DNA of 64,000 nt from positions 558,001 to 622,000 of the forward strand of contig JARGXX010000115.1 in the NCBI GenBank assembly GCA_030374765.1, read 5' to 3'. Under the pieces are notes generated by a model. That model saw nothing but the letters and a program-made list of their open reading frames with translations, searched no databases and had not been told where the DNA came from. Positions 33,417 through 54,155 of the stretch are shown piece after piece; position 1 is the first letter of the stretch; each line of letters opens with the position of its first letter. This stretch comes from Agarophyton chilense. Its lineage: Eukaryota > Rhodophyta > Florideophyceae > Gracilariales > Gracilariaceae. Position numbers and translations under genes: made by a program.

Positions 33417-33427
33417 AATCCCCCTTG
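33417..33427 (-). promoter_or_regulatory. Polypurine tract of element A
   Basis: On the minus strand AAGGGGGATT immediately precedes the TGTAC start of the 3' LTR. It would be the primer site for plus-strand DNA synthesis in reverse transcription. Confidence 0.8.
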
Positions 33428-33474: not shown

Positions 33475-35256
33475 ATGCATCGGCCTTCCGAAATCTCCTT
33501 GTCTCCACGGAATTACACCAACTTCTGCTTCACTTCAGACGATTCACATTATTCTGCTTGCACTCGTTCAGCGATGAATCCTTCTACGCCGCACAACTCC
33601 AACAACGGAGAGGTACCCTTAGAGGGCCCTTACGCCAGCAGTGGCTTCAACTCGCCAGCTGCGGCGCCTTCGGCCTTCCGATCAGTGCGGTCTCCTCGCG
33701 TGGGTTTCTACTGCTTGCCATTGCAGCCTTCGACTTCAAGTGTGATACCGAATGCGGCGTATGTATACTCCACTGGGATCACTCGAGCGCCGTCCATTCT
33801 GGCTCATTGCAGCTATCTAAATCCCGCGGACTTTTTGGGACGAGACTCTCTCGACGATGCTGACCTCCTCGCGCAGGCTTCTTGGTTTGACACAGTCGCT
33901 CTTCGCGATGACGTGTTGATGAGCCGGTACGTCTTCAGCGGGGACCGTCCAGGTGAAATTCATTATACGCTTATCCGCAGCCACGATTGGCTTACTCACT
34001 TTGCTTTGCCAGATAACGCGATTGCCTAGTATACCAATGAGAGTATGGACGAAGCCCGTACTCGGTTCACGAAGCTGATATTCCAGCGTCAGCACAGTAT
34101 CATTAGCACGGTCGTTCTCAGAGGAGATTGGAATATGGATCCCCGGATGGCTCGCACGAATGGAGAAGGATACTCTTACATCGAGCCCTTATAAGAAGTC
34201 GACGTCGACGAATGGCGTGGCTTACGCAATGTACGACATGCGGCACTTTGCCTTCGCCGGCCCTTTCTCCGAGCGGACTTCTGCTTCCTCCACAAGAGAG
34301 ACATTCCTTACTGGGATCATCCTCGTTGGGAAGGACATACGAGATGCCGCTTGGGGTACCTGGTTCCATACCATATGATCGAGATTGATCGAATTAGGCG
34401 GAATGCTCTCGGCGGACGCTATGTCACGCTGCCTGAACACTGGGAGGAGATCGAGAGCCCTCGTGAATGTCCAGTGGAGCTTCCTCCTGCCATAACCTAT
34501 ATCGGTTCGGCGTTGAGTAACAACCCGTTCTCGGGATACTGGACGGTCGTGTTCTCCGAGTTCATTGGCAAGATGGCGGCGTATATCTTCTGGGAAACCT
34601 ACGATACCTATCAAGTTTGGTACATGTCGCTAACAGCGCGGAAACATGCGAGAAAACTCGATCTTTCCCGTCTGTTGGGGTCACGTGCCAATTATGACGA
34701 TTTCCTACTCTTGGTAGACTTGATCGACAGTATCGAATGGTATGGGGTTCCATTGGAGCAATCAGCTAGAGACACATGGGTGCGTCATTGAGATAACTCG
34801 TCGGGACGCACAGCTAATGCTGAAGATTTTGTCTGGTACAATCCCTGGATCAGCCAGATAATCACGTCTGATCAGGCTCGTGACCTTCGAGCAAATCCTA
34901 GAGAGTTCCCTTCAAATCAGCATACTGGATATTTGTACGAATCCACACCTTCCGAGTCTTCAGATCAGGAGTGTGAAGAAGCTCCAGGTGCTGATGCAGA
35001 ACTCGATTTCGAGGATGAACCTAAACTATCCGGTACTGCGCTTGTGTCGGATTCATTGCCACCAACGGCTGCGACATCGGGTGTCAACCGGTCGATGGGA
35101 GACTATCATAGGTTCGCCCAACAACCTAGCGATGCAGAGGATCCCTTTTTGGCACTGTCGAGACAATTCATCTTAGACGCGAGTTTCCCCAAAGCACAGC
35201 TGCAAGGCGATCGTGCTGCGCTTACCACCATGCTGAATCATTGTAACAGAGGGTAA
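33475..35256 (+). pseudogene. Antisense accessory ORF of element A (aORF-A), SGNH-like candidate
   Basis: It runs on the strand opposite to gag-pol, between the chromodomain end and the 3' LTR. One single frame spans ATG 33475 (or ATG 33571) to 35256, about 594 codons, with only three internal stops (34029, about 34195, 34791) and no indel. That is far longer than chance would leave open in a decayed element. The N-terminus is Ser/Pro/Asn-rich. The middle has LPPAITYIGSALSNNPFSGY (GS at 34504-34509), then SLTARKHARKLDLSRLL and DDFLLLVDLIDSIEWYG (Asp at 34726). The same blocks recur in the antisense ORF of B2. Block I (Y-x-GS) and a hydrophobic strand ending in Asp/Asn resemble an SGNH/GDSL hydrolase, though the usual GDS is absent. 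The C-terminus is acidic. GTAAGT at 35253 and a pyrimidine tract ending CTGAAG at 35404 could splice on a few more codons. Function is inferred only. Confidence 0.6.
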
Positions 35257-35439
35257 GTTCTTTGACCGACTTTAGATGTCTTCAACACCCTTGAGGCGAT
35301 AACATAAACCAAGTTCTTCTGTTTCTGTGACTTCACGTGTTCCTAAGTAATTCTTCTTCTTCTCGAGTCTTCTCGTCTTCTTCTCTCACATCCTTCTTCT
35401 GAAGGGAAAGAGGATTAGCAGTCGCTCCGCGAAATGGCG

Positions 35440-35610
35440 CCTAGAAAGCGCCATGATAAAGCACAACCTGCGAGCGCTAGATATGAGTTATAGGCTCCCA
35501 AGTATCTCTTCCTGAGGATAACCGTATCAACGGATACAATACAGTAGTCTGTGGGTGTTTTCGTCTTTGCCGTGATCGATGATGCGATCAATGGCGTATT
35601 CCTGGGCATT
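35440..35610 (-). pseudogene. Chromodomain at the end of element A pol
   Basis: On the minus strand EYAIDRIIDHGKDENTHRLL is followed by YCIR, a TGA where chromodomains have Trp (35529-35527), YGYPQEE and, after a one-base frame change, TWEPITHI. The order is that of a chromodomain, which reads methylated histones and targets integration in chromoviruses. The stop is a TGG to TGA type change. This places family A among chromoviruses. Confidence 0.75.
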
Positions 35611-35619
35611 TCCCGGCGT

Positions 35620-36213
35620 TTAGGCGGATGGCGCGAGGTTCCGGTTCATCGGCTTATACCGTCTGACAAACGAACACGTCGAATCATTATGGGATTTGAC
35701 AACGATGTCGTTTCCTTGAAAATCCCTGGAGAGCGCTTGAGAACTTTCTATATCTTCTGGTTGAACCTGAGTAGTCTGTTCGAACAGCTGAGTGCATTTT
35801 TGTGCCAATGTAGAGCCGTTCTCGGCTTTTGACTGCATCGTAGTCCGGTCTACAGTTACCCATTTTTCTTCACGTTGCGTGTTATTTCTGTCCTTCTTAG
35901 GACCCTGAGCCAAACTGGGCTTTTTCACCGAAGTTTCGGGCGGAGGTGCATCCACCACCAATGGAGTTTTAGCTTCATCTTCGCCTTCTTCTCTTTGGTC
36001 GGTTGACAAGCGCGATCGTTCATCGAGTGGCGTTCCACTTGACGGTTTAACCTGAACGGGTAATGGCGTGTGTGCAGCCGCTTTGGGACCGTATCTAATT
36101 GGACCAAATTCGAAAATATCTTTCCTTTCTTCAGGTACTATGGTGGTACCGGAGTGCTGGCTCTTGCCACGGGGCTGATTCAGATTTTTCGGATATTTGC
36201 CTTGGAATGCCAC
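35620..36213 (-). CDS. Element A integrase C-terminal extension/linker
   Basis: An open 197-codon frame between the integrase core and the chromodomain. It is rich in Pro, Glu, Lys and Ser (VDAPPPETSVKKPSLAQGPK) with no recognised fold, and it is continuous with the chromodomain after frame changes. I read it as the variable linker of the pol polyprotein. Confidence 0.5.
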   Translation of the reverse strand: MAFQGKYPKNLNQPRGKSQHSGTTIVPEERKDIFEFGPIRYGPKAAAHTPLPVQVKPSSGTPLDERSRLSTDQREEGEDEAKTPLVVDAPPPETSVKKPSLAQGPKKDRNNTQREEKWVTVDRTTMQSKAENGSTLAQKCTQLFEQTTQVQPEDIESSQALSRDFQGNDIVVKSHNDSTCSFVRRYKPMNRNLAPSA

Positions 36214-36814
36214 TGTACTGCAGCGCAGCGGGAGACCCGAGCCGTGTCAGCGCCTTGTGCCACGGGAAGCAGATCGTCTGATTCGAGGGGTAGCTCCCGT
36301 ACCTGCTGCTAAACAGCGCTTCCATTCCCAGTTTCCTGGGGTTCCGAGTTGTCTGGTGTGGTTTCAACGCGGTCGCACAATAATCGTTTATCGTCTTCTC
36401 CTGTCTTCGAGACTACCGTGACATCGGTGAGCTGCATTACCTTTAAAGGTCCAGATGATACCGGTAGCAATTTGTGACGGGGTCCATCCTGCTTTTCAGG
36501 TCGTTCGACGCGAACAAACGCGTATCCTCCTACCCGGAGATCTGAAAACTGTCTTCGCCGTCGGGCGTCCGAACTACATTTGTAACGCGCTTGCGTTTTT
36601 AGAAATTCTCGAGCTGCTTACTCTGTCCTTTACCTCAGGTCGTTTCTCGACTTCATATGGTTCTTCGCCGGTGTCAGTTTGTCTTCCTCGACTTCATCCA
36701 ACCCAATAGGTAGTGACGGTGGGCTACGTGATATCACGAGATCGAATGGAGCCGCCTTTGTAGACGTATACACTTGCGTGTTGTACGCAAAAACAGAATG
36801 TGTCTGTGTACATT

Positions 36815-37494
36815 TCTCACTCCTTGGGGTGATCCGTGATGTAATGCTGAAGAGCGGCTAATAACGTACGGTTATAGCGGTCCACCTGACCATTTCAATA
36901 TGGATGGTAGGTCGTGGTATACACGTTCTGGGTGCCCATTCTTCGGCATAAGTTCTGAAAGAACTTAGCGACAAACTGTTATCCATTATCTGATAGCAGA
37001 ACTTCCAGCGGCCCGTACATATACACTCAGTCTTTGATGAAAGCCTGAGCTATTATCGAGGCGGTTATCCTCTTCAGCGGTACAGTCCGTACAAGTCTTG
37101 AGAATCGATCCGTAATTACCAATAGGTAGCGAGATCCTTGATGGGAACGAATTAGCTCTCCAACTATGTCGATGCTGAAGAACTGTAGAGGCGCCTTCGC
37201 CGGGAATGGGGTCATCTTTTTCGTCTTCTTATAGATTTTCACGCGATTCATCGCACACATTCGGCATAGCTGTACCGCAGCATGGCAGTCCATTGCCAAC
37301 GTTGGCCGAAAGAAGTTCCTTCTTAGGGTCGTAAACAACTTTGTTCCTTCTGGGTGTCCAGATAGCTTCGCATAATGGGCCAAGTAGAGTACACGACTCT
37401 TCAAAGCGTGCGGAACCACGATCTGATCATGCTCCTCGACATGTCTGAGCACTCTACCTCGTGAATCGAGCGAAAAGGGCAAATCCTCCCCCAC
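36815..37494 (-). pseudogene. Element A integrase
   Basis: Integrase inserts the cDNA into the host genome. The N-terminal HHCC zinc site reads H-x3-LSGH at about 37385-37365, then CRMC near 37255. The DDE core has FSIDIVGELIRSHQGSRYLL (first Asp, near 37165), LLSDNG near 37000 (second Asp) and NGQVDRYNRTL near 36880, where Asp replaces the usual catalytic Glu. In-frame stops occur at about 37024, after SDNG, and before NGQVD. It is in the same frame as the upstream RNase H. Confidence 0.85.
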
Positions 37495-37743
37495 GCTAAG
37501 ACGAGAGCGTATCGCTGTACAGAAGTTATCTGTGATTTGCTCATTGAAGAGCCGAGTGATAGAGATACTCTGGGGTTAATGAGGAGGTTCAGTTCCATAG
37601 GATGCCATGAGAGGGTCCAATTGTGGGAAATCCCCTTCGTCTTCTTGATCCTCAAGTTGCGTTTCATCTTTATTCGTCTTCATTGAGAAACAAGGTGAAT
37701 CGTCATCGATTTCTCCTTGGGTTTCCTCTAGAGTTTCCAATCG

Positions 37744-38307
37744 CTATAAAGCGTCGGCCTCTATGCTAGCCATTCTCTTCTTATATTTATCCTCGAAATC
37801 GATTTCAGATAGTCGTAAACGCCAACGTGGTAATCTCCCGGAGGGGTCTCTTAATGATAACAACCATCGTAGGGATGAATGATCCGTATGGATGGTAAAC
37901 GTTTCTCCCTGCAGATAGGGCCGTAAAGTAGTCAGCACCCAGACCATTGCAAGGCATTCGTTTTCTGATACGGAGTAATTCTTCTCTGCAGAGATCACCG
38001 TTCGTGACCAGTAACCGATTGGTTTCCTCTGACCGTCGGGATGGGTCTGAAAAAGAGCGCACCCTAGCTGATGCTCACTGGAGTCGGTATCCAAAGAATA
38101 GGGTGGGTTGGGTTTTGGAAATGCCCAGGTTGGTGCTGTGACGATATTTGTCTTCAAAGTCCTGAAGGCTTCGTGTTCGGCGGGTCCGAATTCCTCGAAC
38201 TTAACAGGCTGTCCCTTACGCATCGATGCGTTTAATGGAGCTGCAATGTGCGAGTAGCGCGGTATGAATCGTCTGTAGATGTTACATAATCCAAGGAAGG
38301 ATCGCAT
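37744..38307 (-). pseudogene. Element A RNase H and RT connection
   Basis: It starts with MRSFLGLCNIYRRFIPRYSH, the Ty3 RT connection, then YSLDTDSSEHQLGCALFQ (first Asp of RNase H), NYSVSENECLAMVW (Glu) and FTIHTDHSSLRWLL (third acidic residue in TDH). The frame is unbroken for 187 codons and would degrade RNA in the RNA-DNA hybrid. It ends at a TAG (37746) and then continues in frame toward the integrase. Confidence 0.88.
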
Positions 38308-38342
38308 TTGAGTCCGTGTGAACGGTCGTTGCGATATGCAAA

Positions 38343-38950
38343 CTACTGCTGTCTGAGCTCATGAATTGCAAGCTGACCAGGCCTAATTATGGTGCCCAAA
38401 TACTTAACAGAATAAGCGAAACATCCGAATTTCTTGAACTTCGAGGTTATACCTGCTGTCTGCAACGCTTTGAGGATCTCCTCCACATTTTGCATATGAC
38501 TCTCCACATCCTGAGGGACGATAATTATATCGTTCAAATACACTAGACATGTTTTCCATTTATACTTCGAGAGTAATATGTCCAGGGCGCGCTGGAAAGT
38601 TGCCGGAGCATCGGTAAGTCCAAAGGGCTTCCGTTTCAAAAAGTGTATTCCAGAGTGTGACACAAATGCAGTCTTATCCTGACCATTTTCGGCTACAGGA
38701 ACCTGCCAATAGCCAGTGTTGGTGTTAAGCGTGGTGAATACGTTCGAGTCGACTAAGCTTTCCATACATTCGTCCACGCGAGGAAGTGGATATGTATCTC
38801 GTATCGTAACTGCGTTGAGTTTCCAGTAGTCCACACTGAATCGTAAAGAACCATCAGGTTTTGGGACTAACACCACAGATGAAGCCCGAGCAGATTGTGC
38901 TGCTTCTATTACTCTCGCTTGAGCATCTTGGTAACATTGTCCTCCTCGAT
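38343..38950 (-). pseudogene. Element A reverse transcriptase
   Basis: Clear Ty3 RT blocks are LVPKPDGSLRFSVDYWKLNA, TYPLPRVDE, FTTLNTNTGYWQVPV, FGLTDAPATFQRALD and the catalytic box VYLNDIII, where YLDD has become YLND, which would abolish polymerisation. Upstream (39084-38900) a frame-shifted piece still shows KKYDSMWSGKLGKI of the RT N-terminus. RT is out of frame with RNase H, so there is at least one indel. Confidence 0.88.
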
Positions 38951-39210
38951 CTAACGAGTTCGCGGTCCTTCTCTGTAAGGTGACTGAGAACTGGGACGAG
39001 ATCCCAGGATAACATCGAGAGATGTTCTGTGGCGCAGATCTTTCCTAGTTTTCCACTCCACATAGAGTCATACTTTTTCAACATTTGTTTGATTCTTCCT
39101 TTATATCCTTCGGGAACATTGTCGAGAACTAGTTCTTCTACCAGCTTGTCTGGGTTCTTCTGTTCTTCTGTCGTTTGCGACTACTCTCTGGGACCTTCAT
39201 GCGCGCCAGT

Positions 39211-40002
39211 TTATTCGTCTGACACATTAGAAATTCCTAGCACTTCTGTGGCAGAGATATGAGTCGAAACCACTGCTGTAGGGTGCGGCAGAGCAGATGC
39301 AACGATGTAATTCTTGGGTAAACTATAATCGTTATGGGTAAAGTTACTGGTGAGTATTCGGAAGGGTTTATGAGGTTTAACTTGGGCAATTCCATTCGGT
39401 GCGAGAATTACTCGATGCTCGTACATAGCTGCATTAGGCTGGATTACCACGAGACCGTTTCGTTGTGTTATCACTTGTATTCATGTTTGGGATTGAGTCT
39501 GAAACACAGTAGGTTTCGACACACGAATCTTTGGTGATGTAAGACCAAAAGCCAACTCGTATTCCATGGAGGAAGGAAGTGGAGCAGCTGTAGGGACTCT
39601 TCATAATGCTCTTCTCACTATAGGCACTGTCGAGCCATCGTCTAACGTAACCAGTTGACTCCGAGGGTGGATCGCTTCGACTAATCTGTCAAAATAATCA
39701 CACCCCAGAACAACTGGTGCGACCAGTTACTCGCAGACAATAAAAGTCACCTTCACTAAAAAGTGCCCGAGTCGAACGAGCAACTTCACTCTTCCAAGTG
39801 TTCTCACTGCATTCTTATTAGCATCTGGGATATCCGGCAACGGACCGTAACGAATTTGTTCCTGATCGGTGGGTCCTAGTTCGGATATCCGAAAAACGTT
39901 CGGTCCGGCGCCTGTGTCAAGAACTGTCAGGCGGCGGGTCAATAAATCCTTGTTTGAGCCGATGTCGGCATGAACTTTACGTATCCTCTTCTGCGTTATC
40001 AT
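39211..40002 (-). pseudogene. Element A aspartic protease
   Basis: LTVLDTGAGPNVFRISELGP near 39935 holds the catalytic DTG triad of retropepsin-type proteases. VVLGCDYFDRL near 39705, after an in-frame stop, is the conserved C-terminal strand (usually LLG-x-D-x-L). The frame stays open, apart from three stops, to 39211 and so includes the protease-RT linker. Confidence 0.8.
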
Positions 40003-40460
40003 AATAAAGTTTTACCGTTTTTATGGACAAGTTTAACGTCTCCAAGGACGTTTGAGTTCGCAGTCAAACTTTACTCGCTTTCCAACGGACGGATTCAATC
40101 CGCTCGACGGAAGATGATGAGTCCTCAACACGACCTTGGGTTTCCAAGCACGGGAACAAAGAGGCGAATACTCCCTTTTAGGCTCTACGCGATGGAAGAG
40201 GGCAAACCCCCTAGTGGTTCCCTCACTTAGTTTCCCGAATGAGGCGGGTCGTCCGCCCTTAGGGCGTTGCTTCCAACTTGCGGGTTATCCTTTGGTGCTT
40301 CAGTGTTCTGAGCTACTGGAGCTCCAGATTGATGTCCAGGATGGTAGCTAAGCCATGCTTACACCTTCCAGTAGGTACCAGCCAGCACTAGGGTTCTTTC
40401 CTCCACTGAGAGAGTCTCGTAGTTCGTGAGGGCGCGACCTAAATCCTTTGCCGGAAGAGT

Positions 40461-40502
40461 ACATTCTGAAGACAGATGATGACGGCCATAGCACAGATAG
40501 CA
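40461..40502 (-). other. Element A gag zinc knuckle
   Basis: On the minus strand CYLCYGRHHLSSEC is a perfect CX2CX4HX4C knuckle, used by gag to bind genomic RNA. It lies between the gag frame and the protease in the expected place. Confidence 0.88.
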
Positions 40503-40723
40503 TATTGACGCTTCACGGCGTGCTGCAGACATCGGTTGTGATCGATACGCTATTCGCGTGTTCAGCCATCCAGGTTTTCCATTCTTGAATCCTCCGTCTG
40601 GGGTTTCATGTATGCACGGGATACTGGGCGTCTGCCCTCCATAGCCACGAGAGCTTCTTCTTACTGGGATTCTGAGTGAGATAGATCTTCTGTGGGTACC
40701 GAAGAGGGCCGATAATTTATAAG

Positions 40724-42470
40724 TTAAATAGAATTGTGTTGCGATTGGTTATCGTGTCTAACAAACGACGACTCTCGAGAGTCAACTGGAGATCCCAGGT
40801 GGAATAACTTTCGAGTGGGTTTTGCCGCTTGTTTGCATATTGTCTCTGCTTTCGATGCACAACTTGTGGTGTTCCGCTTAACTCCGCGAGCTTTTAGTGC
40901 GTCACCTCCAGCTTGCGCAAACTGAACCAACTCCAGAAATGGGGTTCTTTCATGCTTCTCTCGAAGTCGAGCAACTAGAGATTTGATAGTAGGATCGATC
41001 CCATCGATGAACAACGTAATCTTGTCCTCCGTGTAGTGAACGTTTCTACAGCTCGTGGCCATTTTATTAAGCCTCGAGCTGTACTCTGCTTCTCCCTCAC
41101 CAGGTTTCTGGGTCACATCACGAAGATCCAGGACAGCCTGTCGGATTGCGTTCGATGTCGCATTGCTTCGCAGTAAGTACAGCACTGCCTCCGGCCAGGA
41201 GGTTATACCTCCTTCATCAGCTGTCAGGGATCCGCAAACGGAGCGGAATTGCTCGGACGCAAAACCAGTCAAGAAAAGTGGTATTGATACCAAAGCTTGA
41301 GGTTCACTCATTTCTGAGGTGTTCGCCTCGGCAACGAAACGAGTAAAGAAGTCGATAACGAGAATGTGCGTTTTTCCATCAAAGACTAGAGCATTCAGTC
41401 CATTGTTCAACCGCTTAATGTGGTCCTTAACCTTTGCGGTTTCGCGACCCGATCCCTTCTTTCCGTCTCTCTGTAGGCTATAATACCTGTAGTCCAGGAC
41501 CTTCCGATACAACGGATTCGTACAAGGAAGTGGTCTGAGACGCTTGTACTTAGAACCTCGCTTCGTTAGTAGCCAAGAAGATTTTTTCCTGTTCCTAGAA
41601 AGCGAACTACGATGATCATCATCACTAGAATCGTCGCTGGACTTATTCGACAAGTCAGACTCGTCAGCACTGGAGTTCTCATCCTCCAATCCTGACGAAT
41701 CATCATTAGTGTCCGACTTGGACTTTCGCTTGTTGCGACGTCTTGACTTCGATTTTCTTCGATCGCTCTTCCCTCAAGGGGATTTCATTTTCGTCTCTCA
41801 CGACTTGGGTAGTAGTAGGCTGCGCATTCACTACTGCCTCCAGGCGTTGCAGACGAGGGCTAACTAGAGTGGGGATTTGCTCAACGTCAACGGTCAGGCC
41901 CGGTGAAGCCTGCGGAGCATTACTTTGCATTTCCATTGCTTGGTTCAAATCCTCTCGCAGGGTTCTCCCATCTGCCGACATCGGGTCTCTCTCTTCTCGA
42001 CGAGCGAGTACGCCTCGTTCTCGGCGCAAGCACTCGACATCCTCGGTAATGACGGTAATCTGCGATTACAATCCAATGATTCGCTTACGATGGGCGTTTG
42101 GTTCCGATTTGAGATTAAGCACCTGAGCGCGTAAATCATTTTCTCCAGCAGTGTTTACGACCTGTTGGTGTCTAGGTTCATTATGGGAACCATCTGCATC
42201 CGTGGTTGGTTCAATAGCCAACTTCACGGTCGTGGGTACATCCGAGAGATCTCGTCTATCGGTTACCGAACGACAGCGTGTCATCGCCTGACGGTATAGT
42301 CGCTTTCCGGCTTCTGTAGATGAGGCGAGCCTTGGTCGTGGCCCTGAGTCTGAAGGACCTGGGGCACCAACATTAAACTGGGTCTTCTTTCTTTGGCATT
42401 CCGAACAAATGCAATGTTCGCAGACGAAATAATTGACATCTTCAGTTGAATATGACAGCGTAGTTAACTA
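40724..42470 (-). pseudogene. Element A gag
   Basis: The main capsid-like frame is 41689-40724 (321 codons): an acidic Ser/Asp-rich head (DDSSDDDHRSSLSRNRKKSS), then the helical gag core (FDGKTHILVIDFFTRFVAEA, GEGEAEYSSRLNKMATSCRN). An upstream frame from about 42470 to 41706, with one stop and one shift, adds a coiled N-terminus and a small cluster CEHCICSEC near 42420. Gag forms the virus-like particle. No ATG is preserved at the N-terminus. Confidence 0.78.
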
Positions 42471-42614
42471 CGAAACTCTGTAATAGCCGGACGTGTTTGG
42501 AAACCGTTCACGAGATCGTGTTCCACTCGACTTAAATATCAGTATCGATTCCACGTTCCAGGTGCGAACTATTTGGAGTAGCCAACCACAGTGTTTCGAA
42601 GTCGAAAGACCACT

Positions 42615-43268
42615 TGTGGTATCAGCTCTGACGGAAAGAGCAGACACCTGCGATAGTGTTCGGGACTGCCAAATGGGTGCTTGCGGCTAAGGGGAACATG
42701 TGCTAGAGCACAACACTATCAAGCTAGAATGGGGCTTGTAAGGCCCTACTCGCCAATGAGGGTCGTCGGTACTATGGAACAGACAAGTATATGTTGTAGC
42801 CCGTCCGAATCTCCGGTTAAGGAATCCTGAACGAGGAACGAGACAGTTTGTAAACCCGTTGTTGTCTCCTTTACTTTGGAGTCGGCGCTCCTCTCTGTGC
42901 CTTGTGTACTGTGCACAGCGGTGAGCGCCGCAGAAAATAATATCTAGATATAAACTTGGTCAGCCAGTTAACTGCTCTGCAGTACGGGATAACTAGCTCT
43001 AAATGGGCTTCCACCTAGGAAGGGTAGGCTTGGTTGCCACATGGCTCCCCACTATATATGCGCCCTTGCCAATCCTGTATTTCCCTACAAAGGGTCGAAT
43101 CGAATGCGCCGTTGCAGGCCAAGATCCCATGTGTAACATACCACCTCGTTGGCTATCTACGGGATGCCGCTCCACAACTTCATCATAACTGTTGCACTCA
43201 CCCATGAGTATTATCGTACTTATCCGAAAAATATTCCATCGGTATTCCGAGAGTACTAGAATACTACA
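42615..43268 (-). repeat. 5' LTR of element A
   Basis: On the minus strand it starts TGTAGTATTCTAG and ends GATACCACA. It pairs with 32769-33416 with many substitutions, showing long residence. The sequence after it (AGTGGTCTTTCGACTTCG) is the place of the primer-binding site, but I could not match a tRNA with confidence. Confidence 0.9.
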
Positions 43269-43273
43269 ATACT
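43269..43273. repeat. Target-site duplication of element A (right)
   Basis: ATACT, identical to 32764-32768. Confidence 0.85.
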
Positions 43274-43825: not shown

Positions 43826-44056
43826 ATAGGGATTTGAACTGTTTGCTGTGCGTAGCTTTGCTCTGAGACAACTACTGAAGCTTGTCGCCCAGAGGCGGTA
43901 GTCAAATGACTCCTGTAATTCTCTTCTATCCTCTACTTATACTTGCAAATGCTAGATGATATTAAATACAGCTAAATGACATGTAATACAATATCTCTAA
44001 AAGGGCGTCATTGAATATGCCAAGTAAGTGTGCCTCGTGTTTCATATTACTCGACA
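43826..44056 (-). repeat. 3' LTR of copia C2
   Basis: On the minus strand it starts TGTCGAGTAATATGAAACAC and matches 55775-55999 over about 225 bp. A purine-rich tract (AGAAAGAAAAGAGAGAAGAG, minus strand, 44060-44090) directly precedes it, which marks it as the 3' LTR. The low-coordinate limit is approximate. Confidence 0.75.
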
Positions 44057-44089
44057 TCAATACTCTTCTCTCTTTTCTTTCTAACCAAA

Positions 44090-44716
44090 GTGTTCTTCTG
44101 AACTCTTCGACTTTGCAACTTCGTTTAGATAGATGCTCAGTCTTCCAGAGAATAGCGTCAACTGTAGAGCTTTTGACAGGCAGCTATCATTCTTCGTTAC
44201 AGGGTCTGCGTGGTTAACAGACGCAGGAATCCATGATATATAATCGACGATACGTGTTTCAAATTTAAATCTAATAGAGCTTACGTCTCCTTATGTCAAT
44301 TTGTCCACGGAGTTTCGTTGGGTCCATATAGATGAAAAGATGTCTTTTTAATCGACTAGAATCCCCAGTTTGATCTCTAGGTCGAGTGGTTCTTGGGAAG
44401 CATTTCTTTTAGTCTTTACTTCGTCTATTCCTTTTCCAGCTGCTAAAACTTCGGCTACCGGCACACTTTTGACAGGTCTCTTGGCCTTATGAGACATCCT
44501 TGACGTTACATGATATGTAGAGTTCTTTTTCATTCTGCCTATTAGCAGTCCAGTTGAAACACCGAGATGTCCAACATCATCGACTCCTGATGCATCAGAA
44601 AGTACAAGATTGCTTAGTTCATATTTTTTGCAGTCCGTCGGACGTGGATACAAGATGACTATGCCAGGCTTTTTGAGCTTTGTCGTAATGTTGATCTGCT
44701 CTTTAATATGGCTCAT
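44090..44716 (-). pseudogene. Copia C2 RNase H
   Basis: The frame 44716-44348 has LSNLVLSDASGVDD (first RNase H Asp), RMSHKAKRPVKSVPVAEVLA (position of the SS-x-AE block, here VAE) and LGILVD. Continuing with stops toward 44090, it shows ISWIPASVNHADPVTKNDS, the copia C-terminal signature also seen in C3. The RT and integrase are missing: gag lies only about 230 bp upstream on this strand, so C2 has a large internal deletion. Confidence 0.75.
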
Positions 44717-44949
44717 ATTAACATCTGGAGCCTTTTGTTACAAATAACTGCTCTACCTGTAAAAAGAACATAATGAAGATCATGTATTTTCAATGCAGCT
44801 AATTGAGCTGTTTACAGATGAAATGCGGCATTTTCTATTTGGTTCAGGTTCTGATTGTACTCCATCCTTCTGCCTTTGGATACTGCATACTATAATATGC
44901 CTTCTAACTTTTCTGCTGCATTTTTCTGTATGGTGTAGATATCACAGGG

Positions 44950-45297
44950 CTATTGGAGTGTCGGGCTGCTGCTCTTCGAGCGACTGCCACGAGGCCCACG
45001 ATTGCCGCGGTATGGAAGGTGAACGATGCCTGAGTTCAGCGCGTCTGTCTGCTGCAATACTGGGTTACCAGTACGGTTGATATCATCGAACTGGCTCAAC
45101 ACGGATGTAATTTTCTCGTACTTCACTTTGTTGAGGTAATCAGTGGTAGATGCCTGTCCACCAAGAGTACTGTTTCCCGCTGCCGCCATAAGGACTGAGA
45201 AACACTGTCCATTCTCAATTGATGAGTTGGCAAGAAGTATGAAGGCGGCAAGGGCTTCTGGGAGTTTGGCCGTTCTTGACTGGGCATTAAATTTAGA
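44950..45297 (-). pseudogene. Copia C2 gag, 3' part
   Basis: On the minus strand the frame reads SKFNAQSRTAKLPEALAAFI, CFSVLMAAAGN and VKYEKITSVLSQFDDINR, then an Arg/Gly/Ser tail to a stop at 44950. The style is that of copia gag (LP-x-x-L, then a helix with V-x-x-x-L-x-x-x-E). The other half lies beyond the B2 insertion at 55431-55690. Confidence 0.6.
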
Positions 45298-45540
45298 CGC
45301 CTACAGTCGAACATAAAGGCAAGTATAGTGTTTTTACGTTTTTCTGGACCCGCCTGCGCTGTTCATCAACGCCTACCAACGTGGTCTCAGTATGCCAGCC
45401 GTTCCCATAGCACCTTTCAGTGGCTGGTTCTGCCACACTTTACAGGTATCTACAATCTCCTCTTCCTAGTTCGAGCTTATTGCACTCTCCCTAGAACCGT
45501 CTGGTCTTACACCTTTGCTACCGTTTTGGTTAATACCACA
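45298..45540 (+). repeat. 5' LTR of B2 (truncated)
   Basis: It matches 55197-55430 from CTACAGTCGAAC to ACCACA. Homology to the 3' LTR stops abruptly at about 45300, so its first part is missing. After the ACCACA end comes TTTTGGTCTCCCAACTTAAG, the expected place of the primer-binding site (TGGTCTCCCAAC). Confidence 0.8.
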
Positions 45541-45659
45541 TTTTGGTCTCCCAACTTAAGAAATAGGTGCTCACCACGTTTGGAATGGAATTAGAGGACT
45601 TGGAGTTGAACCCGTGCCGTTTGGTGAAGGAGTCACTGAAATAGCAACTACTGACTCAT

Positions 45660-47366
45660 TTGTTTACCTCAATGGACAAATCATCGAAAAAAGCACCGAG
45701 ACGCGTCACGATGGCTCCTATCGCACCAGTTGGTGGTACTTTCTCACGAAGAGGCCTTGCACAACCAATTCTGTTCAACCCGAAGGAACTTCTTCGGAAG
45801 CCGAGAACCACTCAGGTCAATACGGCAGGACGAGAGACAGAATGTCTCTCAACAGAAGTCAGACATACTAATGTGATTAGACAAAAGGAAGAACCCCCTG
45901 GTCCCCGTATGGAAATCAATGCAATTACCAGTGTGGTGGTTGATTGGGCCTATCAAAAAAGGATGGACCGTGTGCCGGTATTAATCATCAACTACCTCGA
46001 GAACGAGGTTAAAAGACAAATTGACAAATTGGTGATGCTATCCCTACAGAATCATGGGGTTTTCCAATCCGAAGTAAGGGCGAAAGCAAACAACGTGAAG
46101 GTGGAGGCCCAAGTTTCTTTTCAGACACCTCATGATATTTCTGGTGATCTCCAAACCAACGTTCCATTTTCGCAAACTAACGAGAAGCCGCAAGAACTAC
46201 TTCTGAGAGGGGCAGAGCCTCCGACGATTGAGGCTCAGGGTATTTTTACCTACCGAAACCTGTTGTTAGAGCTGCGCTGGGAACCATTGGCGGAGACCCT
46301 GGTGGCAAATATGGATCTTCAAACTTGTAAGAAAAGCGACTCCGACGACCATCTGGTAAGAAAAAGAAGAAAACCAAAAAGGGCGAAGAGAAAGTGGCAT
46401 CAGTCCGACCCTGACTGTTCGAGCTTGGAATCCGAATCAGGTTAGTCCACGGATGAAAGCCGAAAAAATTCACGGAAACGCAGGAAGGATTCCCGTCGTA
46501 AGAAAATGAAAAATAACCGCAAGGGTAAAACCAAACGGTATGACTCGTCGGAGTCAAATTCCGACAGCAATCTCGACCTACAGGTGATCGTTCCGTTTAA
46601 CGACCATTTTACAAAGGCAGTCGACTATCACACCTATAGGTTGGAGAACAAGAACTTTGATTATACCAAAGAGGTTGCTCAAAAGATAACTAAGCATCAC
46701 CGGAAGCTTAGTTTCCAGATGGGGGATACCCGTTTTTTGGTAGATGAATCTATCGCTATCATCGACTTGTTTCAGAGATTCAAGATATCTTGTGACTAAA
46801 ATGGGTTTTCAGAAGAGGCCCCAATGTGGTTATTTGAGGATTTCCTCAAAAATCAGGGCGGCGACATGTTATACACCCGCTTAGAGGGCAATAAAATGGC
46901 GGTGGATGATGAACAGACGGAAATGCTGACTAGATACACACAGGTGGTGAATTCCCTTCTGGAGACCTATGCAACCGATGAGTTGATTCAAGAGGCCTAC
47001 TATGAAGTGCTCACAAACCGTCAACAAGCAGGACGAACCGAATTAAAATACACATGCTCAGTCTGGACGACTGCGTCCAGACGCGATAACATGTTTACAA
47101 CCACAAGGTTAAAGTCAATGTACGCTGATAACATTTACAAACCAATAAGGTCTCAGGTAAGGAATTATCTTGGTACAATTCGTAAGGTACATTACAACGC
47201 ACTGGCGCGTTGTGCGCAACGCCTAGTAGATACGCTACGAATGGAGAAGAGGACTGTGGTCCCCGTATCGAAAGGCACAAAAGATAAACCGAAACGGTCA
47301 GTCTTCGATATCGAAGAAGCATCCACGACCGATGACGGATCAGCTGGGCACACATCACATGGGTAA
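45660..47366 (+). pseudogene. B2 gag
   Basis: A single frame of about 569 codons has just two stops (TAG 46443, TAA 46797). The first ATG is at 45672. It has a basic N-terminus (MDKSSKKAPRRV), a charged Lys/Arg/Ser/Asp middle (KKSDSDDHLVRKRRKPKRAK), then a capsid-like helical region (FLVDESIAIIDLFQRFKIS, ELIQEAYYEVLTNRQQAG). It lacks recognisable sequence identity with family-A gag but has the same architecture, an acidic-basic head before the capsid helices. Confidence 0.75.
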
Positions 47367-47560
47367 GCGATTCATCTGATCGATACGTCTCATGTCGGAG
47401 AACATTCCCTCCCCAGCTCCAACTAGTCAAATTCAGTTTCTGGTGAATCACCGTCAGAACACCGTCGATTCCCTCAACAATGGTGTCCGCCCCACACAAC
47501 CAGGTTTTTGCAGTACCATATGCTAACCAAGCTGGTGGGTAGCTCTCATACAGAACTGCA

Positions 47561-48449
47561 ATGCCATTCCCTAATAAGATTAAACCGAGACCAATCACAA
47601 TGGCATTAAGAGATCCCGCCACAGGCAACCTCCTTTGCTCGTTTTGTTTATCTTTCCATCATTTGGCTATGCATTGCACTAGCGTGGCTCCCAAGATACG
47701 CGTCATGCTTCTACAGGTGCGGCAGCAGAACCATCGGGAAGCCTTTGGTCCCCAATCTGCAGCGGCTCGCTCTGAAAGGATCGCGAATGCGCGCCCCATT
47801 GCATCTCAACAGGTCACTTTGGTCACGGACAAAACTCAGGAAACTGAGCCCGTCCACGGAGCGGAAAACGCCAACCGGTTGGAGTGAAGGCCACCCCAAC
47901 CGGGCCCACTCCGAAGACCTTCCAATTCCATCTGGTTCAAGTATGGATGAATACCCATTGGTCACTGGAGAGGAAGAGATTATAAATGACCCAGTCCCTA
48001 TATGCTCACTCAAATAGAGTAACTACAAGGAAATTATCACCCTTGGGTTTGCTACTAACCATTTGGTTGCATGTTTTACCTTCCTGGATACAGGAGCGGG
48101 ACCCAATCTGGTGAATGCCAGACTATTATCACCGAGGTTTTTGGACAAGATGTTGCTGTGCACATTGCAGAAGCCACTCGTGGATGCGATCAACAGACCT
48201 CTTACAGGCCGTGGTTACATTACCTTCATGTTCATAGTTAAAAACCTGAAGGCAAGAGTCAGATTAATAGTGATCAAGCAATTGGCAACGGATTGTATTC
48301 TGGGGACATCGTTTATTGACTGCCACATTCGGAGTATTTCCGCCAGATCCTGTACGGTACTTTTCAACAATGGACCTCGCATTGCCATTATTAGGAAGCA
48401 AAGAGGACCCCATAAACGGAACACCAGACAGGAGAGTGCAGACCAATAA
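47561..48449 (+). pseudogene. B2 zinc knuckle and aspartic protease
   Basis: CSFCLSFHHLAMHC (47636-47677) is a complete CX2CX4HX4C knuckle. The protease begins near 48078 with FLDTGAGPNLVNARLL, retaining the DTG triad, and CILGTSFIDCH near 48297 is the closing strand. A frame change separates knuckle and protease. The B1 fragment has lost the same residues, so B2 is the better preserved copy. Confidence 0.85.
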
Positions 48450-48846
48450 ACCGGTACAATATCCAATAAGGTCCGGTTAGCCCATATAGTATCCATTCCA
48501 CCGTCCCATCAAACGGAAGTACACCACACATCCTTGCGACCAGGTATGGTATCCAATCAGAACCAAACCAAGTTTATGGACAAAAAAATGACCTTAATGA
48601 CATTAGAATTGTCGACAATATACCGAACAAACCGTTCAAGGTATACCTCAGCAACTTCAGAAACCACATGGTAAAGCTCCTCAAAAATACCGTTATCGGC
48701 TTAGCGCCCCTGGCGCCACGTCACATATTCACAATGATTCCATAATGGTCTCACGTGGATGTGATCGATAAGGAGGGGAACCGAGGGAAAATGAAAACCA
48801 GAAGATATGGAAAAATGCCGAAAACAGGGAAAAGACCGACACCAGC

Positions 48847-49584
48847 ATGGAAATGGATGAGGTTAAGGATTGGAGAAAGGAAGGTTACAGAGTCCTTAAA
48901 GGTGAAAAAAACCGAAAAAGGATACTCTCTCTATTAAAACAGTTCGAAACCATGCGGTCGGGACGGGTGGGTGCTATAGAAGCAGCCCAGCACCGCATAG
49001 ACTTTGCACCAGGCGCCAAGCCTATTCATCAGCAACAGCACCGGGCCGGTCCAAAATCCAGTGAGGTAGGAGTACAGGAGGTGTAGAGAATGTTCCGTGA
49101 AGGTGTAATTGAACCCATAAATGCGGAATGGGCTAGCCTCGTATGGCTTGTGCAAGAACGAGGATAAACTCTAATGCGGTTCTGTATCGACTATCGGAAT
49201 TTGAATGCCGTTGCTATAAGAGTCTCATATCTGATACAGAGAATGGATGAATGTATCGATTCTCTAGCGGAAGAAATTATATTCACCACATTTAATGCCA
49301 ACTGTGGTTATTAGCAAATAGAGATACCCGAAGAGGACAGGGATACGATCGCGTCCACATGTCACGCTGGTCTCTACTGCTTCTTGCGAATGTTTTTTGG
49401 TTTAAGCAATGCGCTAGCAACCTTCCAACGGGCTCTCGACATTATACTGTCAAAAATATGGTGGACAACCGCATTTGTGTATGAAGACGACGTGGTCATC
49501 TACTCTAAAACCATGGAAGAGCACCCCAAGCACGTTTGGACCGTACTGGATCTCCCAAAAAAGGTTGGAGTAACTCTGATGTGA
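48847..49584 (+). pseudogene. B2 reverse transcriptase
   Basis: One frame has stops at 49084, about 49165, 49312 and 49582. Blocks are ETMRSGRVGAIEAAQHRIDF, VIEPINAEWASLVW, FCIDYRNLNAV, FNANCGY before a TAG (TGG in relatives) then QIEIPEED, FFGLSNALATFQRALDIIL and the catalytic VYEDDVVIYS, in which YxDD is intact. Downstream, VEYVGHKISTGKH and SLIGLCNVYRRFIKGFVKIA (49594-49857, another frame) form the connection. Confidence 0.87.
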
Positions 49585-49839
49585 AGCAAATACATGTGCT
49601 TCAATCACAAGGTAGAGTATGTCGGGCACAAAATCAGCACAGGAAAACACCAAGTAGCGAACCGAATTTTGAGAGCTGTGAAAGAAGCAAAAACCCGCTC
49701 AACCCAAACGAAGATACGCTCCTTAATAGGTTTGTGCAACGTCTACCGCAGGTTTATCAAAGGCTTTGTGAAGATAGCAGCCCCTCTAAACCGAAGTCTC
49801 CAAAAAAAGGTTTGTATATATAGAAGACGACGAACTAGA

Positions 49840-50330
49840 CGCCTTCCACCTCCTTAACGCCGCGCTGCTTTCACCTTTTATGTTGGCATTATCGAAAGCG
49901 GGAAATCTATTTACATTGGATACTGATGCCCCGGAAGCCCAGATTGGTTGCTGCCTAAAGCAGGAGAAGGACGATAAATGAAGGGCATTAATTGGTTTTT
50001 AGAGCCAAGGGCTCATACGGACGGTAAAAACCTACTCCGTCACGGAGAATGAATGCCTCGCTGTGGTATGGAGCATGTTGATGCTACGACCCTACCTATA
50101 TTGTGCCCGTTTTACTGTACGAACGGATCACGAAGCGTTACGGTGGATATTAGGTCTGGCAGACGCCTCCAGACGGTTAGCTTGATGGAGACTCTGACTC
50201 TCGGAGTTTGAATATAAAGTACAATACCGTCCTGGTATAAAAACTAACATCGCTGATGCGATGTACGGTTTAAATACCGATGGGCTGGACACTGAACCGG
50301 TTAAAGATGATATACCATGCTTCAAGATTC
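49840..50330 (+). pseudogene. B2 RNase H
   Basis: LFTLDTDAPEAQIGCCLKQE (first Asp), TYSVTENECLAVVW (Glu), FTVRTDHEALRWIL (third acidic residue) and FEYKVQYRPG follow in the right order. Stops include TAG at 50000 (TGG type) and TGA at 50183 and 50195 (CGA type). Confidence 0.85.
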
Positions 50331-50410
50331 AGCTGGCACAACCGTACGGTAAGGACGAACAAAAAGCACTATGAAATGATGTAGAACGATGGAGGGAGAA
50401 ATCACCTGAA

Positions 50411-51402
50411 ATGGTAGGAGACATCAAAGAAGGGGGGGACACTCCCATAACCCGAGAGAAGTTCTTGCAAGCGCAAACTACGAACAACTACTGCAGGAAA
50501 TTGAGCAACCAAATTAGTATAAAAGGATCGCCGTTCAATATAGACCATGAAGGTTTCCTAGTGCCTCGTTCTACCTTGGACGGAGCACTCCAGAAGGTGG
50601 TATCAGAGTCTCTACGCCCGAAGGTGTTGTCTTTGGACTATCACCCAAGACTGGCAGGTCATCCAGGAGCCACACGGATATATTATACCTTGAGGAAACA
50701 CTTCTAGTTGCCCACGAAGTTTACACCTATGTGGCTCGCTGGGCTTCGTGTGTGAATACCCGAGGTGGTTCATAAAAGCACAGGAGGTACCTGGAGTTTT
50801 TCCCAGCGGCTAGGTCTTTGGAATTGGTAGCTATCGACATCCTGGGCCTACTGCCAGAATACTAAGAGGGTTACCGATTCGTGATGGTCATCACCGATCG
50901 GTTCTTCAAACTAACAAGAGCCTTCCTTAATAGTTGGGTATATCCGTACGGTGCACCAATGTATCTACTCACCAACAATGGTTCGAACTTAGCATCGAAG
51001 TTATTTGAAGCAGTATGTACCATGCTTGGGTTGAAGCATTACTTCACTACGGCGTACCATCTGCAGACGAATGGCCAAGTGGAACGTTTCAACAAAACCC
51101 TCGTGGCAATAATACGACACTATGTAGAAGAACACCAAACTGGATGGGATGATTATGTACAGCCCGTAACAAATACCTATAACCTTCAGGTACACCGATC
51201 TGCGCAGACTACTCCCTTCGAACTGGTCCTCTCACGTACACCTCATGGTATTGTCCTCCAACTCGGACCCGAGAACTACGGAGCAGCTGGTACACTTACC
51301 CCCGCTCAAGTCAAGAAGAGTATAACCAACAAGCTCCGCATCACCTTAAAAGAAGCCAATGCAAAATTGACACTAGCCCAAAACCAGTACAAAGCCTACT
51401 AA
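50411..51402 (+). pseudogene. B2 integrase
   Basis: The zinc site shows HPRLAGHPGATRIYYTLRKH near 50640-50700. The core has AIDILGLLPEY (first Asp, near 50830), VMVITDRF, then YLLTNNGSNLASKLFE near 50962-51010, where the usual SDNG is TNNG, so the second catalytic Asp is lost. NGQVERFNKTLVAIIRHYVE near 51070 retains the Glu. The C-terminal helix runs to 51402. Confidence 0.87.
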
Positions 51403-51839
51403 GACAAAGGAGTAAAGATGGCTACCAAGGCGGAAACCGGGGACTATGTCTTCCTAGATATCTCTGCCAATGCGTCGATACCGACACCATCCCAAGAAAG
51501 AGACGATATTTAATGATGTTAATACCAAATCAAAGCTACTTCTCAAGTCTAAAGGACCGTATGAAGTAATCTCAGCGAGTGAGCACACCGTTACGGTTCG
51601 AATGGATGGAATCGAAAACACCGTATCGGTGTAGCGGGCCTCTATAGACCCTAGGAAAGGTGTCACTACAGCGGACCCAGCCTTTGGTCCGGCACCCACA
51701 GAACCGTAGTTGAATTCGCCAAGTGGTACGGGTAGTATTCAATCGCAAAACCTGAAGAACACTCCAGACCCTACGACAACCAAAGGAGCCCCAGAGCAGA
51801 GCTCTGCACCTCAACAACGCGGGCACCATGAGGTTCCGG

Positions 51840-52021
51840 CCTCCGAATGCGCGATCGACCCCATTGTAGGTCACAAACGAATAACAGAAGGTCTTCGTTA
51901 CTCCATACGGTGGAATGGCTCTGGCCCTGGAGATGAGACATGGGAACCTCCTCACCATATACCACACAACTTACAATTACAGTACTGGCGCAGGCGCAAC
52001 GAACTCCCACCAACCGATTGA
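51840..52021 (+). CDS. B2 chromodomain
   Basis: The frame ends AIDPIVGHKRITEGLRYSIR, WNGSGPGDETWEPPHHI, LQLQYWRRR. This has the chromodomain aromatic positions Y, W and W and the TWEP signature, unbroken by stops. It sits at the pol C-terminus, as in all chromoviruses, and would direct integration to marked chromatin. Confidence 0.88.
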
Positions 52022-52158
52022 TAAAGACCTACACTGGTGCAGTCCGCTAAAGAGGGAGAAGGTAGACATTGGCTGTGCGATTACTCGGCGAGAAGGAAAA
52101 AGAATTGGACAGTTAAAAAGAAGCACAAGTTTATTGAAAACCGCAATAGGTAAAAACC

Positions 52159-54155
52159 CTATAAAGCCCACTCTAAGAATGGATCCCAACCACGTGTGGT
52201 AGAAGGTCCCCCAGAAGACCCGGAACCAGTGCCACGGAGGTTCGGAGTGTGGGACTGTGAGCCCGCACTAGACCAATGTGGAGCAGAACCCTGGGGAGTT
52301 TGAGGCAACAGCGGCAGACCTGAAGAGGTACCCGAGGGGAAAGGAGCAGTAGTGAAAGACGAAGAGCCAGGCATGAGCATCAGGACGATACCCGCAGGGT
52401 AATTGCTGGCGGAATCTAAAAAAAGACCAACATTGGTGCCCATGAAGGGCTCGCTTGAGGTGTCCCCTCGCTCCAGAATAGTGCTGAGGTCCGCGACGTG
52501 AAGCTTAACCACCTGGTACATCCCGACCTGAAACCGATTACGGAAGGCAACCGCCTGGTTGATAGCGGCGATATAGTCCGCGTGGCAACAAATGAGTTGC
52601 TACAGGAGCGCAAGAGCTTCCTGGAGGGAGCGCGGACCGGGAAGGTTGAGACGAGAGACAAACACGCGCTGCATTCTCATAAGCGCACCACTAATAGAAG
52701 GAGCCGTAACAGGCTCACCACCGCCAGCTGTGGTAGATTCACCATGGAGGATTGCGCAGGCCCGTCTGAAGGAGCAGGAACCGAACGGGGAAACGTGGAT
52801 AGGAGAGAAGCCAGGAGAACCAGCAGGTGCAGCGGTAGCGGAGACGGGACTAATACCTTACGCAGTCTCTCCCTCATGGGTAAACGGCGGAAGGGATCCA
52901 CTAGTGAGTTCCGCGCCTGGGAATACCCGATTTGCTTCACTGGGGATGGCTAGCTTCTCGAAGTCCCAAAATTCCCAGCATTGGTCATACTTAACGGATG
53001 CGACAGAGCCACCTCCAGGTAAGTCTCCAGCTGAGCAATAGTGTACTTAGTATCAAATAGAGTCTCATTCACACCAATCTGGAGGATAAGGACCACTGTT
53101 GGGCGAGGAAGCCTAAATATACGACGAACAGGTGAGAAACCATAATTGGAAATCCGAGGGTCAGCGGAACGGCTGTTCCAGTTAATACCGTCGCAGGAAG
53201 CTTAAACAGCTACAAGGGAAACAAGGAAGGCCCACTCCGCGAGAGCCCCAGACCAAATGGTGGGATAGTACCCCTCGTGTTGGCCGCAATGGCTGCCAAA
53301 GTACGCCAGCACGGGGGGAGTCGGAACGCACAACCATTGAGGTACCTCGTAGCCCGCCCGCAACTCGGGACAGATAATATACCATTTGCAGCGATTCTCC
53401 GTCATCTGAGAGAAGATCTCAGTGCAGTTGAAATCATGAATGGTTCGGACGAGACTACTCCGACAGCAGATCTGGGCCTTGGTGGCAGCGTCCTCGCCCC
53501 AACGGTTACGATCCAACTAGTGAATGTTGTTTAAGGGTGTGTTGAACTTCACCATTTCTGGGTCAAGCTTCAGCCACTTCGTCGATGGACCGATACGGTG
53601 CAACAGTCTCACCGGGTTACGGATGTAAAAGAACTGGTCCGTACACCGTAGATACAGTATGTCGCTCGGGATGGTGTTAAGAATGAAGACCCGAAATGGT
53701 GAGTTCTGTTAGAGCTTCTGGAAGCAAGGCTGCCTCCCTGGGCAGGAACTATTCTCCCGTGACCACGTTGGTAGATCCAATGGCACGGTGCCAAGATGGT
53801 GGCTGTCCGAACGATTCCAAGAGGCATAACCAGGAAGGGCAGGATGCTTAAACTGTGAACCCAGTACAGCGGTGTTAATCGGAACAGACCAGGAGGGGCC
53901 CTCCAAGTGCATCGCCTTGAGATCCTTCGGGAGCAAACCGTAAGGGTTGAGGGTTGCCGGCGGGGCGCTGCACAAGTACGGATCGTAATGTCCGCTACCA
54001 GGAGGGAAATCAAAGGCCTCACCAGGAATTGGTAACGAAGAGAAAAATGGAGAGATAATGGACGGGCCACAACCACGACCCCGAGAGCGAGAGCGGGTCC
54101 AAGGCTTCGAGATACCACGGCTGCAGTTCGCACCACGAGTAAGCTTACCAGACAT
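52159..54155 (-). pseudogene. Antisense accessory ORF of B2 (aORF-B), SGNH-like candidate
   Basis: It is transcribed against gag-pol, from ATG 54155 toward the chromodomain. One frame runs to about 52950 with stops at 53709, 53517, 53202 and 52950, then the next frame continues to 52159. The N-terminus is Arg/Ser/Gly-rich. Then come TPPVLAYFGSHCGQHEGYYP (GS at 53297-53292), RISNYGFSPVRRIFRLPRP, TVVLILQIGVNETLFD (Asn at 53069) and, near 52520-52370, YQVVKLHVADLSTILERG and GLFLDSASNYPAGIVLM. This order matches SGNH/GDSL hydrolases: block I (GDS, here GS), block II (N-x-G-x-S), block III (G-x-N) and block V (D-x-x-H, here D-x-x-S). Key residues are partly lost. The element A antisense ORF shares PP, Y-x-GS and GY at block I and the block III strand. 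An esterase-like accessory protein is my inference. Confidence 0.6.

What the first reader, a model, noticed from the sequence alone, without database searches (positions are those of the whole stretch)
33475..54155. Antisense accessory ORF shared by two chromovirus families, with SGNH-hydrolase-like blocks
Seen directly: elements A (minus strand) and B2 (plus strand) each carry, between chromodomain and 3' LTR, a long frame on the strand opposite gag-pol (A: 33475-35256 plus; B2: 54155-52159 minus). The two proteins align at block I (A: LPPAITYIGSALSNNPFSGY; B: TPPVLAYFGSHCGQHEGYYP) and at a hydrophobic strand ending in Asp or Asn (A: DDFLLLVDLIDS; B: TVVLILQIGVNE). In B2 a further N-x-G-x-S segment precedes it and D-x-x-S-x-x-P-A-G closes the protein, the block order of SGNH/GDSL hydrolases. 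Established: esterase domains of this fold occur in ORF1 of some CR1/L2-type LINEs, and antisense ORFs are known in some plant gypsy elements. I know of no SGNH-type antisense gene in chromoviruses. Inference: an accessory enzyme gained once and kept across lineages, expressed from a promoter in or near the 3' LTR.
Basis: partly seen in the sequence, partly recalled or inferred. Interest (0 to 1): 0.88.

Follow-up and report, generated by a model that had tools for sequence, protein, structure and literature searches.

The report
Antisense gene in red-algal jumping genes

Summary
The antisense gene is real. The window copies are broken: A has three internal stops, B2 has stops and a frameshift. 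Many copies lie in the same genome, a gracilariacean red alga at or near Agarophyton chilense. Twelve A copies chosen for openness read 574-615 aa without stop, eight B copies 662-876 aa. Between A subfamilies antisense dN/dS is 0.09-0.16 in 17 of 20 loci; the other three belong to the reference's own subfamily, 0.57-0.68. The same codons read on the opposite strand give 1.11-1.48. Window A gives 0.146 for the antisense gene and 0.148 for pol. The A and B cores are homologous: 25 of 30 tested pairs beat shuffles. Other relatives found: A. chilense gene models and one assembled-transcript ORF.

The SGNH/GDSL reading is not supported: no such Pfam match, N-x-G-x-S is a frameshift artefact, no conserved Asn, and the one shared His column changes in the transcript ORF. 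Both structure predictions failed, so the fold is unknown.

The kind is known (plant Grande/RIRE2/Retand, fungal Boty brtn). This protein family, in red-algal chromodomain elements, appears new. Likely role: an element-encoded regulator with its own 3'-end promoter (inference).

The parts
33574..35256 (+).
34195..34791 (+). Conserved core of the A antisense protein, including the motif shared with B (PE-W...PP-x-x-x-Y-x-GS)
32766..33417 (.). LTR of A on the 3' side of gag-pol; its edge is about 156 bases from the antisense ATG at 33574
42612..43269 (.). LTR of A on the 5' side (88% identical to the other)
40724..41689 (-). A gag (Pfam Retrotrans_gag)
38343..38876 (-). A reverse transcriptase (RVT_1)
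37744..38307 (-). A RNase H
36513..37494 (-). A integrase (H2C2; rve below cut-off; matched by the open copy's pol frame)
35491..36509 (-). A pol tail; related copies match the B chromodomain-containing tail here; no Pfam Chromo match
52273..54182 (-). Antisense gene of element B2 (likely ATG at 54155; broken by stops and by a frameshift between 53013 and 52983)
53202..53516 (-). Conserved core of the B antisense protein
49150..51414 (+). B2 reverse transcriptase, RNase H and integrase
51500..52018 (+). B2 pol tail with chromodomain (Pfam Chromo E 2.7e-5, 24.5 bits against cut-off 25.1)
45301..45541 (.). Probable 5' LTR block of B2 (79% to 55202-55431)
55202..55431 (.). Probable 3' LTR block of B2, about 1 kb from the antisense ATG

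Best explanation
A protein-coding accessory gene on the strand opposite gag-pol, between the pol end and the 3' LTR, is a standing part of two families of chromodomain-type Ty3 retrotransposons in a gracilariacean red alga. Shown by sequence: it is coding, under purifying selection between subfamilies, placed consistently, and homologous between the families. Inferred: it is transcribed from its own promoter in or just inside the 3' LTR, because the sense genomic RNA cannot encode it. Inferred: the product regulates the element's own expression or replication, working like maize Grande GENE23, fungal brtn or HTLV HBZ, without known relation to them.
For: Open frames of 574-615 aa in 12 fetched A copies and 662-876 aa in 8 fetched B copies (all 20 were chosen for openness). 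Of the 106 best-scoring A matches, 30 have no stop over the 388-aa core; these include the query itself and four copies with identical scores. Between-subfamily dN/dS is 0.09-0.16 in 17 of 20 A loci, and 0.21-0.29 in the 6 of 12 B loci where dS could be estimated. Control: the same A codons read on the opposite strand give 1.11-1.48 in 17 of 17 loci, with 8-18 stops each, against 0.11-0.17 in the antisense frame. Antisense and pol dN/dS in window A are 0.146 and 0.148. Pol-tail sequence lies on the opposite strand beside the gene in 18 of 20 A and 11 of 12 B loci. From the pol side, the gene is found in 13 of 16 B loci and 12 of 16 A loci, ten of the latter by only 18-59 C-terminal residues. 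A-B homology. Third-party gene models in A. chilense and an assembled-transcript ORF of another lineage. Role: the B N-terminus is Arg/Ser/Gly-rich in both subfamilies and the A core has a basic stretch; precedents in PMC7264820 (passages and section 5) and PMC11963269 (passages).
Against: Within recent subfamilies dN/dS is high (ratio of medians A 0.71, B 0.57), as expected if copies decay after insertion, so it gives no support by itself. In B the antisense gene is less constrained than integrase (0.297 against 0.144), and codon periodicity is weak in several stretches of B. Long sense-strand frames (209-327 aa) overlap the gene in 11 of 12 open A copies, though not in the other subfamily (106-190 aa, 17 loci). 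In 3 of 16 A and 3 of 16 B pol loci the gene was not seen, and one further A locus showed only an N-terminal piece. No fold, localisation, promoter or strand-specific transcript was shown. The A protein is acidic (pI 5.3), which does not speak for nucleic-acid binding.
Confidence: 0.45

Rival explanations
1. The antisense gene encodes an SGNH/GDSL hydrolase.
For: A hydrophobic stretch followed by Gly-Ser is nearly invariant in A and B, and a His and an Asp column further on are shared by the A rows and 4 of 5 B rows with letters there. GDSL ORFs do occur in bdelloid LTR elements (Vesta ORF3; PMC5408684, passages).
Against: No SGNH/GDSL family among Pfam matches up to E 10 in 19 A and 19 B members, though HMMER's filters drop most weak matches; no PDB sequence match of that kind. 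The Asn block is absent or out of frame. The His and Asp columns change in P0005, and the alignment there is weak.
Confidence: 0.05
2. Real accessory protein, but structural or membrane-related (env-like or particle-associated) rather than regulatory.
For: B has a strongly hydrophobic 19-residue stretch in the core (mean Kyte-Doolittle 2.09).
Against: The best A segment reaches only 1.2; no env-type Pfam family matched.
Confidence: 0.2
3. The selected product is the antisense RNA (for silencing or control of sense RNA) and the frame is incidental.
For: Non-coding antisense transcripts are known in other elements (PMC7264820, passages).
Against: Third-position excess and dN/dS of 0.09-0.16 in the antisense frame, near that of pol, against above 1 on the opposite strand.
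Confidence: 0.04
4. A host gene picked up by the elements, or an element gene since taken over by the host.
For: Listed as proteins in an A. chilense gene set.
Against: The matches in this genome are dispersed and numerous, with pol alongside in most loci examined; no homologue outside these gene models and P0005 in three protein searches.
Confidence: 0.08

Closest known systems
Antisense accessory ORFs of plant Ty3 elements: Retand lineage, Grande GENE23, RIRE2 (most Retand clusters with the TRP28 domain PF04195)
   Same: Position between pol and 3' LTR, antisense orientation, presence in most copies, conservation (PMC7264820, PMC11963269, passages); about half of the Retand elements studied there have tandem arrays in the same interval, as one A copy here does
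   Different: Retand elements are non-chromovirus (PMC11963269). The proteins here gave no PF04195 match in member scans, and the only PF04195 hit in this genome is below cut-off and elsewhere
brtn of Boty-like Ty3 elements in Botrytis cinerea
   Same: [quoted passage not shown] PMC8365987 passages, including its reference list)
   Different: Fungal host; its sequence was not compared here
HTLV-1 HBZ and HTLV-2 APH-2
   Same: Antisense protein gene, antisense promoter inside the 3' LTR (PMC7264820 and PMC11963269, passages)
   Different: Retroviral; no sequence relation claimed or tested
GDSL/SGNH ORF3 of bdelloid Vesta LTR elements and esterases of CR1/L2/RTEX LINEs
   Same: Extra ORF in a retroelement
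   Different: The bdelloid ORFs are reported with invariant catalytic residues intact (PMC5408684, passages); the present proteins do not show the signature

Membership tests
[quoted passage not shown]
   LTRs and pol mapped in the window; pol tail on the opposite strand in related loci
Antisense accessory ORF between pol and 3' LTR (aORF-3R) | Present in most copies of a family | tested here: met
   12 of 16 A and 13 of 16 B pol-anchored loci; only the 16 best-scoring loci of each were examined
Antisense accessory ORF between pol and 3' LTR (aORF-3R) | Coding conservation like that of other element proteins | tested here: met
   A: dN/dS 0.146 against pol 0.148, pol tail 0.467; B: 0.297 against integrase 0.144, with RT, RNase H and pol tail saturated
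Antisense accessory ORF between pol and 3' LTR (aORF-3R) | Transcribed antisense to gag-pol | tested here: inconclusive
   One transcriptome ORF, P0005, of unknown strand and species
Retand TRP28 antisense protein | Transposase_28 domain PF04195 | tested here: not met
   Not among matches of 19 A and 19 B members at E up to 10
SGNH/GDSL hydrolase | Profile match to a GDSL/SGNH family | tested here: not met
SGNH/GDSL hydrolase | Conserved Ser, Gly, Asn and His blocks in order | tested here: not met
   Gly-Ser shared; no conserved Asn block; the one shared His column changes in P0005
SGNH/GDSL hydrolase | SGNH fold | tested here: inconclusive
   Models failed, mean pLDDT 30.7 and 32.7; no fold search made
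Chromovirus | Chromodomain at the integrase C-terminus | tested here: inconclusive
   B2: Pfam Chromo E 2.7e-5, just under cut-off; open B copy L055 E 0.012. A: no Pfam match, but the B pol tail matches in 17 of 20 A loci

The most novel reading that the evidence does not exclude
Red-algal chromodomain retrotransposons independently evolved an antisense regulatory gene in the same place as plant Grande/Retand, fungal Boty and HTLV, using an unrelated protein of new fold. This would make an antisense regulator at the 3' end a recurrent design of LTR elements, here old enough to predate two families whose reverse transcriptases are only about 54% identical.
Probability: 0.35. Interest if true: 0.7.

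Novelty: new variant of a known kind. Interest (0 to 1): 0.52.

Why it matters
It adds red algae to the plants and fungi already reported to carry antisense genes in Ty3 elements, with a protein family for which no relative was found. In family A, selection on it is close to that on pol, which suggests the element needs it. That gives a testable case for why LTR elements repeatedly evolve antisense genes at the 3' end. It also warns annotators: an A. chilense gene set lists such element genes as unnamed proteins.

Tried and rejected
SGNH hydrolase: not supported at sequence level. TRP28 (PF04195): no match. Antisense RNA without protein: disfavoured. A competing gene on the sense strand of the same interval: sense frames of 209-327 aa overlap the gene in 11 of 12 open A copies, so this was tested. 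In the other subfamily the longest such frame is 106-190 aa in 17 loci. The phase of the 271-aa frame carries 8-18 stops per locus there, and its dN/dS is 1.11-1.48. Rejected. Two structure predictions failed, so no fold search was made. A search for related loci in viral and bacterial collections did not run, as the alignment had no conserved stretch long enough, and was not repeated. Eight answered paper searches listed no paper on antisense ORFs in red-algal LTR elements; the lists show only the top 1-20 papers of each, and most subscription papers are not in that library. Gomez-Orte 2013 and Zhao 2011 were seen only as citations.

Rows and pieces dropped: one search used open pieces of 60 aa or more; searches left out codons reading as stops; 6 of 12 B loci had saturated dS. 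One search tested 30 of 77 possible A-B core pairs; the five pairs with copy L031 failed. The B profile ranked 4 of 7 A rows above the best of 700 shuffled sequences, and the A profile 9 of 11 B rows above the best of 1100.
Full report
What the window holds. The window is part of contig C115 of an unnamed 79.8-Mb genome. Protein matches point to the red alga Agarophyton chilense or a close relative: gene model P0001 is 88% identical to the open A copy L038, and P0006-P0008 look alike by eye. Element A lies on the minus strand between LTRs 32766-33417 and 42612-43269 (88% identical), with gag, RT, RNase H and integrase. Element B2 lies on the plus strand, with RT to integrase at 49150-51414 and a chromodomain just under the Pfam cut-off. 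Its best LTR pair is 45301-45541 / 55202-55431; another repeat (43827-44063 / 55769-56006) flanks it.

The antisense frames. An open A protein from elsewhere in the genome aligns to 33487-35235 (+) in one frame at 56% identity. An open B protein aligns to 54182-53013 and then, in another frame, to 52983-52273 (-). The window copies are broken: A has three internal stops, the B2 frame eight stops and a frameshift.

Is it a gene? A genome search with the A core scored the best 150 of 1540 candidates, and with the B core 150 of 314. I fetched 12 A and 8 B copies chosen for open frames; they read 574-615 aa and 662-876 aa without stop. With an open A core as query, 30 of the 106 best matches have no stop over 388 aa (my count of the list, from 1703 candidates). 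Twenty A loci, the window's own among them, were compared with copy L038. Three belong to its subfamily (dN/dS 0.57-0.68); the other 17 give 0.09-0.16, with codon positions 1, 2 and 3 differing at 0.22-0.30, 0.16-0.25 and 0.51-0.59. As a control, the same codons of those 17 loci read on the opposite strand, in the phase of the long sense frame seen in open copies, give 1.11-1.48 and 8-18 stops each, against 0.11-0.17 in the antisense frame. Twelve B loci against L048: dS saturated in six, 0.21-0.29 in the others. As a yardstick, window A against an open relative gives 0.146 for the antisense gene (574 codons), 0.148 for pol from RNase H to integrase (461 codons) and 0.467 for the pol tail. For B the antisense gene gives 0.297 and integrase 0.144; RT, RNase H and pol tail are saturated. 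Codon periodicity is weak before the conserved Met of A (codons 1-50: 0.58/0.44/0.61), so the gene probably starts at 33574. Within the recent subfamilies the ratio of median dN to median dS is 0.71 (A) and 0.57 (B), as expected for copies decaying after insertion.

Is it part of the element? Pol-tail sequence lies on the opposite strand beside the gene in 18 of 20 A and 11 of 12 B loci (best hit of each query; both sets include the window; L010 also has a stray 44-residue pol hit on the same strand). Starting from pol instead, the gene is found in 13 of 16 B loci. For A the fetched flanks barely reach it: 10 of 16 show 18-59 residues of its C-terminal end, one shows an N-terminal piece, and two more have it further off by coordinates, so 12 of 16 are counted and three show nothing.

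Are A and B related? BLASTP of the window cores gives E 1e-4. hhalign gives E 8e-4 with a probability of only 24.6. Smith-Waterman scores exceed at least 299 of 300 shuffles in 25 of 30 core pairs tested, z 3.9-14.4; the five pairs with copy L031 fail. Profiles rank 4 of 7 A rows and 9 of 11 B rows above every shuffled sequence. Shared features are an R-W segment and a PE-W...PP-x-x-x-Y-x-G-S motif. The RT of window A and of an open B copy are 54% identical over 166 residues, so the gene either predates their split or was exchanged.

What is it? Among 38 members scanned the best Pfam match was E 0.036, to an E3_binding fragment. PDB sequence searches gave nothing up to E 1 for A and one chance-level match (E 0.16) for B. 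No Transposase_28 match was found among the members, and the one hit in the genome is below cut-off and elsewhere. P0005 matches copies of this genome at 38-67%, so it probably comes from another species. It shows the gene in RNA, but not on which strand. AlphaFold models had mean pLDDT 30.7 and 32.7 and are uninformative, so nothing is said about the fold. The SGNH reading rests on motifs that are not conserved or are out of frame. Gly-Ser is shared, and a His and an Asp column are shared by the A rows and four close B rows but not by P0005.

How it may work. Since the sense genomic RNA cannot encode it, an antisense promoter is needed. In A the ATG lies about 156 bases from the LTR edge, so transcription likely starts in the LTR or that short gap. 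In B about 1 kb separates ATG and LTR. This is inference. By analogy with maize GENE23 (nuclear, own promoter), TRP28 proteins (predicted DNA binding) and HBZ (PMC7264820 and PMC11963269, passages; PMC7264820 section 5 read), the most likely role is regulation of the element's own expression. Hints in the sequence are weak: an Arg/Ser/Gly-rich B N-terminus and a basic stretch in the A core, while the A protein as a whole is acidic.

Novelty. [quoted passage not shown] None in red algae was listed by eight searches of an open-access library. The protein family seems new. Verdict: new variant of a known kind.

Noticed in passing
window 14001-20000: Very strong GC skew (+0.42 to +0.47 in three successive 2-kb blocks), unlike the rest of the window.
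   Followed up: no
window 58621-59715 (+): A distant RT and RNase H match (27% and 22% to B), probably a third Ty3 lineage; inverted-repeat arms lie at 60817-61202 and 63616-64000.
   Followed up: no
window 8843-10832 (-): Relative of B2 (inverted match to B2 over gag to RT; RT hit); no RNase H, integrase or antisense gene found beside it with the queries used.
   Followed up: partly
L053 107-372: 31-bp unit repeated 8.6 times between the antisense gene and pol in one A copy, recalling the tandem arrays of plant Retand elements.
   Followed up: partly
window 43827-44063 and 55769-56006: An 83% identical repeat pair flanks B2 outside its probable LTRs; possibly LTRs of an element into which B2 inserted.
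   Followed up: no
G000 C114:3160, C115:2894, C115:49474, C34:486566: Four A antisense copies with identical scores, two of them near contig ends: recent or assembly duplication.
   Followed up: no
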